In this document: positions 27,550-52,785 of the stretch, piece after piece | Layout of the letters: every line of letters begins with the position of its first letter | Numbering within the stretch: position 1 is the stretch's first letter | Source of the DNA: Leucocoprinus leucothites | Lineage: Eukaryota > Basidiomycota > Agaricomycetes > Agaricales > Agaricaceae | Length of the DNA stretch: 64,000 nucleotides | Assembly: GCA_013368445.1 (NCBI GenBank) | Contig: JAACJO010000008.1 | Coordinates: forward strand, 1,798,001 to 1,862,000 | Direction: 5' to 3' | The notes under the pieces: generated by a model | What the model was told of the DNA's origin: nothing | Seen by the model: the letters and a program-made list of their open reading frames with translations, nothing else | The model's database searches: none | Position numbers and translations under genes: made by a program

Positions 27550-27590
27550 CGGATAGCCAGTGCATTAGTATAGGTCAAAAGGGGGTGCAC
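27550..27590 (+). repeat. left terminal inverted repeat of the 25 kb element
   Basis: CGGATAGCCAGTGCATTAG... up to the GGGGGT run at 27581-27586. It aligns to the complement of 52745-52785 with shared AGCC at bases 6-9 and a GGGGG run one base out of register. Confidence 0.6.
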
Positions 27591-28559
27591 TTTTGTGCTT
27601 GTGTAAGGGTACCGTACTTGGTCACATGCTTGGTAATAGCGGCTGTGTTTACTACTACTAGTGCTAATAGCACCCTACTACTATCTGAGCATGAGCTAGC
27701 ACCCACTGCTTTTACCTCTATACCCCCACCTGAAAAATGGAGCCCTTAAAAATAATTTGAGCGTGTACCAGTGCAAACCTTGAGCTTGAGACCTTCAACT
27801 TGAGGAAGTGTTGCAGCTGCAGAACTCAGGTAATTCTGGAGTAAAAGCCTACCAGTGGGGCGTGGTTTGTGAGTAAATGGTGAAAGACAGAAGGAACCGG
27901 TCGCTGCAAAACCAATTTGCACTGCACCAGCAGAGCTGTGGAACTGGTTTGTGAAGAACTGGTCTCAACGACAGCAAGGAAATTGTGCCATTAGTTTTTT
28001 AAATACCAAAGGTCTCGTATCAAGAGTAGTGGCTTTACTTGAGCAAGATCACTTTGAAGCTAGATACCCTGCAAGACCCACCAGAGTTGGGTTTACCTTG
28101 GATTAGCCAATCTGCCCACTGTCCCAGCATGCATATTAAGCAAGTGATAGTATTGAGTTTATTTAGAGTAAATAGGTGTAAGTCCATTCCAAAGCACTGA
28201 AGCACCAGAGAAAATATGGTTGGCAGAAGGCCTGGTGGCCCAGGAACCAGTCTTATCAACAAAAGGAGAGTGAAGCTGGTTCTAGAAAAACCAGTTTCAC
28301 CACTGAAAGACCAATGAAATTGGTTCCTTGGGGACCAGTTTCAATGGTGAGAAACACATAGAGCTAGCTACTCAACAATTAGCCTTGGTATCAAGAGAGG
28401 GGTGAAACTGGTTCTCTAAGAGTTAATGTGAGCAACAAGAAAGCAGCTAAAGCTCTCAAAAAATCAGAGTTTCAAGAGTCAATTTATGTGTTGAAAGACT
28501 GCCAGTGAAACTAGATTTTGAGAGTCAGCTTCAGCTGTGGAGGACCAGCAAAACTGGTT
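27591..28559. other. left subterminal region outside the repeat block
   Basis: No gene recognised. From about 27,900 isolated AACTGGTT and AACCAGTT motifs appear and become dense after 28,560. Confidence 0.5.
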
Positions 28560-30260
28560 ACCCAAAAACTGGTTGGCTAGCAGAACTTGGTTTTTGAGGA
28601 ACAGGTTTCAGTAATAGAGAAAGGCTGGCAAAATTGGTTGGCCAGAAATTGGTTGTTTGGAAACCAGTTTCAATGGTAAAAGGCAGACAAAACTGGTTTT
28701 TCTAGAACTAGTCCCAACAACAAAAGGCCAGCATAACTGGTTCCTGGTTGACCAGTTCCAGCATTGAAAGGCCAGTGTAACTAGTTCCCAGTCAACCAAT
28801 TCCAGCACTGAAAGGTGGGCATAAATGGTTTCAAAAGAACCAGTTCCAGCAGTGAGTAACTGGCAAAACTGGTTCCCAGTCAACCAGTTCCAGTGTTGAA
28901 CAGCTAGTGTAACTGGTTCCCAGTCAACCAATTCCAGTATCAAAAGGCAGGCATAACTAGTTTTACAAGAACCAGTTCCAGTAGTGAGTAACTGGTAAAA
29001 CTGGTTCCTAGTCAACCAGTTCCAGTGCTGAAAGGCCAGTGTAACTGGTTCCCAGTCAACCAATTCCAGTATCAAAAGGCAGGCATAACTAGTTTTGCAA
29101 GAACCAGTTCCAGCAGTGAGTAACTGGTAAAACTGGTTCCTAGTTAACTAGTTCCAGTATTGGAAGACTAGTGTAACTGGTTTCCAGTCAACCAGTTCCA
29201 GTGTTGAATAGCCAGTGTAACTGGTTCTCAGTCAACCAATTCCAGTATCAAAAGGCAGGCATAACTAGTTTTACAAGAACCAGTTCCAGCAGTGAGTGAC
29301 TGGTAAAACTGGTTCCTAGTCAACCAGTTTCAGTATCAAAAGGTAGGCATAACTAGTTTTGCAAGAACTAGTTCCAGCAGCAAGTGACTAGTGGAACTGG
29401 TTCCTAGTCAACCAGTTCTAACAACAAAAGGTGGGCAAAACTGGTTTTTATAAGAACCAGTTCCAGCATTGAAAAGCAGTCAAAACTGGTTTTATAAGAA
29501 CCAGTTCCAATGATGAAAGGCTAGTGTAACTGGTTCCCAGTCAACTAGCTCCAGTGTTGAACAGCCAGCATAACTGGTTCCCAGCTAACCAGTTTTATAA
29601 GAACTAGTTCCAGCAGTGAGTGACTGGTGAAACCAGTTCTCAGTCAACTAGTTCCAATAGCAAAAGGCCAGCATAACTGGTTCCCAGTCAACCAGTTCCA
29701 GCAACAAAAGGTAGGCAAAACTGGTTTTATAAGAACCAGTTCCAATAACAAAAGGCCAGTGTAACTGGTTCCTAGTCAAACAGTTCTAGTACGGAACAGC
29801 CAGCATAACTGGTTCCCATCCAACCAGTTCTGACAACAAAAGGTAGGCATAATCAGTTTTATAAGAACCAGCCTCAGCAGTAAGTGACTGGTGAAACTAG
29901 TTCTTAGTTAACCAGTTCCAGTGCTGAATAGCCAATGTAACTGGTTCCCAGCTAACCAGTTCTAATGGCGAAAGGCAGGCATAACCAGTTTTATAAGAAC
30001 CAGTTCCAGTAATGGGTGATTGGTAAAACTGGTTCTCAGTCAACTGGTTCCAATGGTGAAAGGCCAGTGTAACTGGTTCCCATTCAACCAGTTTTAGCAT
30101 CAAAAGGCTAGTGAAACTGGTTGATTGAGAACTAGTTTCAACAATAAAAGGCTGGCAAGACTGGTTCCAAATCAACCAGCTTTGCCACTGAAAGACAGGT
30201 GAAACTAGTTGATTGGGAACCAGTTTCACCACTGAGCACCAGTTTTTGAAAAACTGGTGC
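28560..30260. repeat. left subterminal block of about 44-base hairpin repeats
   Basis: About 1.7 kb of degenerate units, each built on AACTGGTT...AACCAGTT with a 5 to 10 base loop, then a spacer such as CCAGCACTGAAAGGCCAGTGT. Two alternating unit types are seen, with loops CCCAGTC or TTATAAG. The period is 44-48 bases, giving some three to four dozen units. Long minus-strand open frames here (for example 28608-29075 and 29897-30301) are by-products of the repeat period. Such blocks near the ends of DNA transposons usually bind the transposase. Confidence 0.9.
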
Positions 30261-30299
30261 ATACTTGACAATGCCAAGGATGAGATCATCACTAAAACC

Positions 30300-50647: not shown

Positions 50648-50789
50648 TATCTGATCCTTTGTGAAACGCCACACTTAATATATAAGTGGTTAGATTTATT
50701 GCACCTGAAACCAAAGTTTGGCAGTCACCCAGATGAGCTATTCCCCATTAATCAGAGACCTTCGCAAGGCCAGTACTGCCCAGAAATGT

Positions 50790-52330
50790 TAGTTTTTGAA
50801 GAACCAGCTTTACCTTGCCTTTTCGGGGTGACTGGTTCCTCGAGAACTAGTTTCGTCTTGTTTCCTTGGAGTGACTAGTTCCTCGAATACCAGTTTCACC
50901 TAAGTTATTCGCAACAACTGGTTTTTCAAGAACTGGTTTCATCTCATTTTGTCAGACTCAGAATAACTGGCTCTCGAGGAACCAGTTTTACCCAAGTTTT
51001 ACAGCACAACTGGTTCTCAAAGAACCAGTTTCATCTCTTTTCCTTGGAAGGACTAGTTCCTCAAGAACCAACTTCGTCTCGTTTTCTCGGAATGACTGGT
51101 TCTCAAAGAACTGGTTCCATCAAGTTTTTCAGCATGACTGATTCTCAAAGAACTAGTTTCACCCAAGTTCTTGAGACAACTGGTTCCTCAAGAACCGGTT
51201 TCACCTTGTTTTCTTGGAAGGACTGGTTCTCAAGGAACTGGATTTACCCAAGTTTTTCGGCACAACTGGTTATTAAAGAACCAGCTTCACCTAAGTTTCT
51301 TGGAATAACTGGTTCCTCAAGAACCAGTTCTGTCTCATTTTCTTGGAATGACTGGTTCTCAAGGAACCAGGTTTACCCAAGTTTTTCAGCGCAACTGGTT
51401 TTTGAAGAACCAGTTTCACCTAAGTTTCTCGGAATGACTGGTTCCTCAAGAACCGATTTTGTCTCATTTTCTCAGAACAACCAGTGTTCAAGGAACCAAT
51501 TTGATCCAGGTTTCTCACAGCAACTGGTTCCTCAAGAACCAGCTTTGTCTCATTTTCTCAGAATGACTGGTTCTCAAGGAACCAGTTTCACCCAAATTTC
51601 TCCGCACAACTGGTTCCCCAAAAACCAATTTTGTCTCATTTTCTTGGAAGGACTGGTTCTCGAGGAACCAGTTTCACCCAAGTTTCTCGTAGCAACTGGT
51701 TTCTCAAGAACCAGTTTCGTCTCGTTTTCTCAAAGTGACTGGTTTCTCAAGAACCAGTTTCATCTTGTTTTCTCAAAGTGACTGGTTTCTCAAGAACCGG
51801 TTTTGTCTTGTTTTCTCAAAGCAACTGGTTTCTCAAGAATCGGTTTCATCTCGTTTTCTCGGAACAACCAGTGTTCAAGGAACCAGTTTCATCTTGTTTT
51901 CTGGAATGACTGGTTCCCCAAAAACCAGTTTCATCCAGGTTTCTCGCAGCAACTGGTTCCTCAAGAACCAGCTTCGCCTCATTTTCTCAGAATGACTGGT
52001 TCTCAAGGAACCGGTTTCACCCAAGTTTCTCGGTGTAACTGGTTCCTCAAAAACCTGTTTTGTCTCATTTTCTTGGAATGACTGGTTCTCGAGGAACCAG
52101 TTTCACCCAAGTTTTTCAGTGCGACTGGTCCTCGAAGAACCAGTTTCATCTTGCTTTCTCGGAGCGACTGGTTCCTTGAATACCGAGGTGATCAAGATCC
52201 TTCAAAATAACCAGTTCTGCAAGAACCAGCTGTATCCAGTTTTCAAGTTCAACTCACTGGTTCCTCGGGGACCGACTCCTTGGTGCAAGTATCCTCAGTA
52301 AAGCTGGTTTTTCAAGAACCATTTTTACTT
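50790..52330. repeat. right subterminal block of about 44-base hairpin repeats
   Basis: Units read ACTGGTTCTCAAGGAACCAGTTTC followed by a spacer such as ACCCAAGTTTTTCAGCGCA or GTCTCATTTTCTTGGAATG, with a period of about 43-47 bases and roughly three dozen units. The hairpin core is that of the left block, but the spacers are different. Plus-strand open frames here (for example 51044-51781) follow from the repeat period and are not genes. Confidence 0.9.
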
Positions 52331-52744
52331 GCCTTCCCCATTTCACCGGTTTCTTAACAACCACTCATTTTAAGAAAGGGGCAGACCTGGTCCCTCCAAA
52401 ACCAGTTTTGTACATCTCCCTCGCAGCACCAACAGTTCCTTGAGAACCGGTTTCATTTGTTGTTCACTGACTGCATTTGAGCAACTGGCCCCTTCACAAC
52501 CACTTCCGAAGACTTTTCTCCGAGACTCCGGCGGTTTCTGAGGAACCGACCTTGTTCATCTATTGCAGTTTCTTGAACTTTTTACTATTAAAGTAACCGG
52601 TTCTCATGAAACTGTTTTGTGTCTCCTGCCCACCAAAACCGGTTTTCTAAAAACCTTGAAGCATCATTTTCAAATGAGTGACTGATTGCTAGCATGCTAA
52701 TGAGCAAAAAAGGACCATTTCCGGCCCCTTTGCACTAGTAAATT
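52331..52744. other. right subterminal region, degenerate repeat remnants
   Basis: Scattered half-palindromes (AACCGGTTT, AAAACCGG) become rarer toward the end. No gene recognised. Confidence 0.5.
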
Positions 52745-52785
52745 TGGTCCCCCTTAGTAACACTTTATCACTCGACGGCTGCCCC
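52745..52785 (-). repeat. right terminal inverted repeat of the 25 kb element
   Basis: Read from the end inward on the minus strand: GGGGCAGCCGTCGAGTG... with a GGGGG run at bases 33-37. Imperfect partner of 27550-27590. Confidence 0.6.

What the first reader, a model, noticed from the sequence alone, without database searches (positions are those of the whole stretch)
27550..52785. A 25.2 kb DNA element with hairpin-repeat ends splits a copia LTR and makes an 8-base target duplication
The copia 5' LTR pieces (27012-27549 and 52794-52868) add up to exactly the 613 bases of the intact LTR, so everything between them came in as one unit. Its ends are imperfect inverted repeats, its target GAGCAATT is duplicated (one mismatch), and both flanks carry kilobase blocks of about 44-base hairpins. 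Zisupton-like (KDZ) transposons are reported to have 8-base target duplications and subterminal repeats. I see no transposase, so this may be an undescribed large cargo-bearing form.
Basis: partly seen in the sequence, partly recalled or inferred. Interest (0 to 1): 0.88.

Follow-up and report, generated by a model that had tools for sequence, protein, structure and literature searches.

The report
Decayed KDZ transposon with TET-like gene
A mushroom chromosome carries a large, now broken jumping gene of the KDZ group that landed in an older retrotransposon and carries what looks like a DNA-demethylase-type enzyme gene, and a sister family in the same genome shows the same build.

Summary
Window 27550-52785 is a single insertion into the right (5') LTR of a copia-like element: the two LTR pieces rebuild a 613-bp LTR exactly, and the target is duplicated over 8 bp (GAGAAATT/GAGCAATT). 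Relatives carry a nearly invariant D-D-E and a DDE-like fold; 20 of 39 match Pfam KDZ at E<=0.01. No second DNA-level copy was found. A diverged sister family has the same layout: CxC4 gene, opposite-strand companion gene, hairpins near both ends, and 8-bp duplications at two independent insertions. A third of the 25.2 kb is a nested young Gypsy retrotransposon, so the element is about 17.0 kb. Its cargo gene is a probable 2OG-Fe(II) dioxygenase with the HxE...H motif reported for 'PE-type' TET/JBP proteins; this rests on motif and context, because its structure model failed. Host: Leucocoprinus leucothites. New variant of a known kind.

The parts
18264..18876 (-). intact copia-like LTR (the other LTR of the host element), 613 bp; preceded by the 5-bp duplication TACCC at 18259-18263
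27012..27549 (-). first piece of the split copia 5' LTR (538 bp), ending in the left target copy GAGAAATT 27542-27549
27550..52785 (.). inserted KDZ-type DNA transposon (25,236 bp with the nested Gypsy; 17,007 bp without it and its 4-bp repeat)
27550..27589 (+). left terminus, marginally inverted-repeat with 52746-52785
28301..30250 (.). left subterminal hairpin array, 44-bp units (core ACTGGTT...AACCAGT)
31510..33284 (-). companion gene remnant (best frame 31688-32692), relatives in all four sister-family copies; no Pfam match over cut-off
33285..41509 (-). nested Gypsy-like LTR retrotransposon; LTRs 33285-34252 and 40542-41509 are 968/968 identical, flanked by ATAG
41510..45639 (-). dioxygenase-like cargo gene (GenBank D9756_005720 covers part of it); HxE at 44188-44180 and distal His 44020-44018 kept; a stop codon at 44881-44883 separates two frames (mutation or intron, not resolved)
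48636..50647 (+). decayed CxC4/KDZ-type transposase gene (upstream exons possibly from 47869); CxC4 domain 49122-49520; GT-AG intron 49947-50000; in-frame stops, and a frame change near 50308 where about 300 bp present in the sister family are missing
50801..52200 (.). right subterminal hairpin array, 43-bp units (core ACTGGTT...GAACCAGT)
52746..52785 (-). right terminus
52786..52868 (-). right target copy GAGCAATT (52786-52793) plus second piece of the split copia 5' LTR (52794-52868); copia duplication TACCC follows at 52869-52873

Best explanation
It is a now-immobile cut-and-paste DNA transposon of the KDZ kind. Its own CxC4-type DDE transposase (beside the right end) would have bound the arrays of palindromic 43/44-bp units near both ends, paired and cut the ends, and joined them to a target with an 8-bp stagger, giving the 8-bp duplication. 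It carried two more genes on the opposite strand: a companion protein conserved with a sister family, and a probable TET/JBP-like 2OG-Fe(II) dioxygenase that may have counteracted DNA methylation of the element. Shown: insertion, 8-bp duplication, arrays, transposase family, sister-family architecture; the transposase fold rests on a model of a relative. Inferred: binding of the arrays by the transposase, demethylase activity, role of the companion. The copy looks dead: the transposase has in-frame stops and a lost conserved stretch, and a Gypsy element has since inserted.
Confidence: 0.86

Rival explanations
1. The element was moved in trans by a standard KDZ transposase (PF18758 type, encoded elsewhere in the genome) and the CxC4 gene is a passenger.
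For: 34 PF18758 matches exist elsewhere in the genome; Pfam describes CxC4 as a cysteine cluster associated with KDZ transposases.
Against: CxC4 proteins carry their own D-D-E and a DDE-like fold, and 20 of 39 match Pfam KDZ at E<=0.01; both families in this genome keep CxC4 near the right end.
Confidence: 0.08
2. It belongs to another 8-bp-duplication superfamily, such as hAT or P.
For: An 8-bp duplication alone does not discriminate; Hermes (hAT) is among the fold matches. That P also makes 8-bp duplications is recalled.
Against: No hAT or P profile hit among the 20 window frames scanned with Pfam; the transposase family is CxC4/KDZ.
Confidence: 0.03
3. The 25 kb is not one mobile element but a chance insertion or repair patch, or an assembly join, with fortuitous 7-of-8 repeats.
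For: Single copy, weak inverted repeats, one mismatch in the duplication.
Against: The LTR is rebuilt to the base with a duplication as expected; hairpin arrays lie inside both ends; the sister family shows the same plan with independent 8-bp duplications.
Confidence: 0.03

Closest known systems
TET+ Zisupton elements of Agaricus bisporus (KDZ; Kojima 2025, PMC12730594: abstract, sections 3.1.1, 3.2, 3.4, figure legends and part 1 of 2 of the Discussion read)
   Same: KDZ transposon; 8-bp duplications reported for Zisupton; same fungal family (Agaricaceae, recalled); carries a dioxygenase gene. The one named Agaricus relative of the cargo that I found is P0128. HxE motif as described for the PE type
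   Different: I could not see their sequences, so identity of transposase, termini and dioxygenase is untested. The main text has no hit for 'CxC', 'subterminal', 'Leucocoprinus' or 'Leucoagaricus'
KDZ1 of Cryptococcus neoformans (PMC12810828, passages seen)
   Same: KDZ superfamily, 8-bp duplications, zinc-cluster (CxC1) transposase, about 11 kb, observed to move
   Different: 241-bp terminal inverted repeats; CxC1 instead of CxC4; no dioxygenase or hairpin arrays in the passages seen
Kyakuja (KDZ) elements of Agaricomycetes (PMC12730594, sections read)
   Same: KDZ superfamily with TET/JBP cargo; no terminal inverted repeats, as (by eye) in the sister family
   Different: 7-bp duplications, CA..TG ends, AG-type (HxD) TET; here 8 bp, other ends, HxE
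6.8-kb CxC5/CxC6-encoding insert that disrupts MSH4 in sporeless Pleurotus ostreatus (PMC7641404, one section and passages seen)
   Same: an insert with a 739-aa CxC-type ORF and 46-bp direct repeats; no KDZ transposon found within the distance the authors expected
   Different: different CxC class; no dioxygenase mentioned in what I saw; the authors do not call its protein a transposase there. Its relation to this element is my inference

Membership tests
KDZ (Kyakuja-Dileera-Zisupton) superfamily | KDZ-type DDE transposase encoded in the element | tested here: met
   CxC4 domain in window; relatives with D-D-E in 38/39, 39/39, 39/39 rows, 20 of 39 matching PF18758 at E<=0.01, DDE-like fold of a relative. 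PF18758 does not match the decayed window copy itself, so membership rests on relatives.
KDZ (Kyakuja-Dileera-Zisupton) superfamily | 7- or 8-bp target duplication | tested here: met
   8 bp, 7 of 8 identical in the window; 8 of 8 and 7 of 8 at the two independent sister insertions
Zisupton lineage | 8-bp duplication with terminal inverted repeats | tested here: inconclusive
   8 bp met; inverted repeats marginal, not evident by eye in the sister family; no tree of transposases was built
Dileera lineage | 8-bp duplication (PMC12730594) and Dileera transposase phylogeny | tested here: inconclusive
   8 bp met; phylogeny not tested, no reference sequences on hand
Kyakuja lineage | 7-bp duplication and CA..TG termini | tested here: not met
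   8-bp duplication; window ends CGG...CCC; sister family AGGC...ATGTG with 8 bp
PE-type TET/JBP dioxygenase (cargo) | HxE plus downstream His (2-His-1-carboxylate) | tested here: met
   Of 18 rows aligned, HxE in 13 of the 14 with residues there and the distal His in 16 of 17; a downstream Arg column only in 11 of 17; all three kept in the window copy
PE-type TET/JBP dioxygenase (cargo) | double-stranded beta-helix fold similar to TET/CMD1 | tested here: inconclusive
   model pLDDT 40.5; profile searches of solved structures gave none or 4 hits at E 0.67-2, none to a TET or other 2OG dioxygenase; PF20515 E 0.09 in P0128, below cut-off
PE-type TET/JBP dioxygenase (cargo) | shared between different transposon superfamilies | tested here: met
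   one of five relatives (C3:402739-403522) lies about 560 bp from a Plavaka match at C3:404084-405096; contigs of the other four (C14, C51, C58, C68) have no Plavaka match
Starship-like giant element | tyrosine recombinase (captain) and host-gene cargo | not tested
   No recombinase profile was searched for as such; none appeared among Pfam hits of the frames scanned. That Starships use a tyrosine recombinase is from an abstract listed.

The most novel reading that the evidence does not exclude
CxC4 elements are a distinct KDZ lineage: the CxC protein is itself the complete transposase, end recognition has shifted from terminal inverted repeats to arrays of hairpin units (kilobase-long in the window element), and the elements carry a conserved opposite-strand companion plus, in some, an HxE TET-like eraser. 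The same may hold for other 'orphan' CxC inserts in mushrooms, including the one that makes Pleurotus sporeless.
Probability: 0.4. Interest if true: 0.62.

Novelty: new variant of a known kind. Interest (0 to 1): 0.47.

Why it matters
It turns 'cysteine cluster associated with KDZ transposases' (CxC4) from an annotation into a delimited element: two families with mapped ends, 8-bp duplications and a shared gene plan. That makes testable whether CxC proteins are transposases that use hairpin arrays as their binding platform, and whether an HxE-type TET-like enzyme helps the element escape methylation. It could also explain CxC-bearing inserts in other mushrooms for which no transposase was named (PMC7641404).

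Tried and rejected
Second copy by DNA: left 301 bases, right 596 bases and hairpin patterns find only this element, apart from 8 scattered one-mismatch pattern matches; the DNA search skips very common words, so this is not proof of absence. PF18758 has no match in the window. One ORF of the transposase used as a protein query finds only itself; the profile search was needed. A first guess of a C6 left end from a CCATCTT match inside C6 was wrong; the companion gene led to the true end. The dioxygenase fold failed, so no fold search was run with it; solved-structure profiles gave nothing credible; PF20515 found nothing in the genome, and the tool notes that no control genome rang either. Foldseek alone on the transposase model gave nothing significant. 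An even-centred palindrome scan missed the hairpins (1 in the left block, 0 in the right); a scan allowing loops found them. Starship, Helitron and Plavaka readings were dropped: 8-bp duplication and CxC4/KDZ transposase; Plavaka makes 2-3 bp (PMC12730594). No other fungal genome could be searched with these tools, so empty sites and intact relatives outside this genome are untested. Iyer et al. 2014, which defined KDZ and the CxC clusters (known to me through other papers and recall), was not read. Five paper searches were run; only one search used the term CxC4, and it counts 0 in the 10 rows listed of 16 papers.
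Full report
What was checked. The window is G000:C8:1798001-1862000 of a 47-Mb genome in 110 contigs. A predicted protein from the window is D9756_005720 of Leucocoprinus leucothites, on a contig of 2,102,411 bp, which is the length of C8; so the host is that mushroom.

The insertion. A copia-like element spans 18264 to 52868 between 5-bp repeats TACCC. Its left LTR is intact; its right (5') LTR is split at 27549. Joining 27012-27549 with 52794-52868 gives 613 bp, gap-free against the left LTR with 23 differences. 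Next to the split, GAGAAATT stands on the left and GAGCAATT on the right; the unsplit LTR has GAGCAATT once. The insert 27550-52785 is therefore one event with an 8-bp duplication (one later substitution).

Nesting. 33285-41509 is a Gypsy-like retrotransposon on the minus strand (RNase H-like, integrase zinc-binding and protease domains over their cut-offs; the integrase core rve below its own). Its two 968-bp LTRs are identical, and it is flanked by ATAG. Order of events: copia (3.75% LTR divergence), then the DNA transposon, then Gypsy. Without Gypsy the transposon is about 17.0 kb.

The sister family. CxC4 occurs at five places in the genome: the window, C6, C27 (two) and C48. The last four are 96-98% alike in DNA around the transposase gene and 92-98% around the companion gene; against the window they are 27-59% alike in protein, by segment. 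The window's minus-strand gene at 31688-32692 has five relatives elsewhere, and four of them lie in exactly these four places, 9.7-12 kb from CxC4 and on the opposite strand, as in the window (8.2 kb without Gypsy). The matches are weak one by one (E 1.4e-6 to 2.4e-4), but their positions can hardly be chance. Comparing copies gave the ends: AGGCTAAGAGACC... to ...CACTTATGTG. The C6 copy (638859-654298) is flanked by CCATCTTC on both sides, one C27 copy (47394-60835) by AGACGAAG and AGACAAAG. These are the two of four copies whose right end was seen: the C48 copy loses homology before the end, and the right end of the other C27 copy was not read. The C27 (two) and C48 copies share their left flank, so they look like one insertion duplicated with its surroundings; there are thus two independent events, both with 8 bp. 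Hairpins lie near both ends of C6: 4 in the left 573 bp (shuffles 0.65) and 7 in 400 bp on the right (0.55), against 5 in 3.4 kb carrying the gene (3.0); the right-hand core (GTACCATGGTAC) differs from the window's. These arrays are shorter than the window's. This family shows no terminal inverted repeat by eye (no test run), and the window's is marginal.

The arrays. Left 44-bp and right 43-bp units hold 19 and 14 hairpins against 1.5 and 1.0 after shuffling and are mostly inverted to each other (43 of 53 local matches). Of 54 genome matches to the hairpin core (both strands, up to one mismatch) 46 are inside this element; the reversed control pattern matched 3 times. I read them as transposase binding platforms; this is inference.

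The cargo. On the minus strand 41510-45639 a gene has seven database matches at first, one of them its own GenBank entry, and 13 with a profile (six of these repeat the first set): Leucocoprinus, Agaricus bisporus H97 (P0128), one ascomycete (Rhexocercosporidium, 27% over 55%) and four unnamed. Five places elsewhere in the genome hold clear relatives (C68, C51, C58, C3, C14), with weaker matches at four more. An HxE motif is kept in 13 of 14 rows with residues there, and a distal His 56 residues later in 16 of 17; a downstream Arg column, which I expected for 2-oxoglutarate binding (recalled), is Arg in 11 of 17. The window copy keeps all three. Kojima 2025 (PMC12730594) names HxE the hallmark of PE-type TET/JBP proteins, says they are very distant from known TET/JBP and were recognised by structure-based comparison, and reports them from transposons of A. 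bisporus among others; TET-carrying Zisupton, EnSpm, Plavaka and Helitron2 elements are listed for that species. In this genome one relative (C3:402739-403522) lies about 560 bp from a Plavaka match, which fits; the contigs of the other four have no Plavaka match. Two database pairs suggest co-occurrence of CxC4 and this gene elsewhere: P0004 and P0132 are both on an L. birnbaumii contig of 55,679 bp (NP233_g2987 and g2995), and P0048 and P0134 both list a contig of 8,739 bp; I could not read those contigs. The fold was not shown: model pLDDT 40.5, weak PF20515, none in the genome. I give about 0.65 that it is a TET-like dioxygenase. The genome search with the cargo's main frame has no match on C6, C27 or C48, and a comparison with the 12 sister pieces in hand gave none, so it looks specific to this element.

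Comparison. KDZ1 of Cryptococcus is about 11 kb with 241-bp inverted repeats, 8-bp duplications and a CxC1 transposase (PMC12810828, passages seen). Kyakuja has 7 bp and CA..TG ends; Zisupton and Dileera 8 bp (PMC12730594). The present element is KDZ by transposase and duplication; its lineage inside KDZ is open. In Pleurotus a 6.8-kb insert with a CxC5/CxC6 ORF and 46-bp repeats disrupts MSH4, and the authors found no KDZ-type transposon within expected distance (PMC7641404, one section read). If CxC proteins are the transposases, that insert could be a complete transposon; this is a prediction, untested here.

Verdict. A real, well-delimited, decayed KDZ-type transposon of about 17 kb with a CxC4 transposase, hairpin arrays, a companion gene and a probable TET-like cargo gene. 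New variant of a known kind; I found no evidence for a new class or for a giant element.

Noticed in passing
window 33285-41509: Gypsy-like retrotransposon with 968/968 identical LTRs: a very recent insertion inside the transposon.
   Followed up: partly
G000:C3:402739-405096 (L037, L038): A relative of the dioxygenase-like gene lies about 560 bp from a Plavaka transposase match on the opposite strand.
   Followed up: partly
G000:C6, positions 6696-8291 of the reversed 651000-638001 stretch (L055, L047): A 1.6-kb element with 217-bp inverted ends (98% alike) sits inside the sister transposon; 1254 bp of it recur at 99.7% at C27 (L051) and short end pieces at L017. Its 187-aa ORF reads like a Tc1/mariner transposase (recalled, no profile run).
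   Followed up: no
G000:C27 and C48 (L061, L063, L064; L017, L020, L021): Three sister-family copies share flanking DNA, so a larger segment seems to have been copied; PF18758 KDZ matches lie about 9-18 kb beyond their left ends, relation unknown.
   Followed up: partly
G000:C10:689447-689962 (L060): The best relative of the companion protein (32% over 192 residues) stands without any CxC4 match on that contig; it may be a host or domesticated gene.
   Followed up: no
G000:C27 about 46.9-47.1 kb (L053): Beside the sister element lie three hairpins with a core like that of the window (TCTGGTTC..ACCAGA), about 40 bp apart; perhaps the trace of a third family.
   Followed up: no
window 2752-8645 and 5217-10971: Two further pairs of direct repeats (83% over 2.4 kb, 77% over 0.5 kb) outside the finding.
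   Followed up: no
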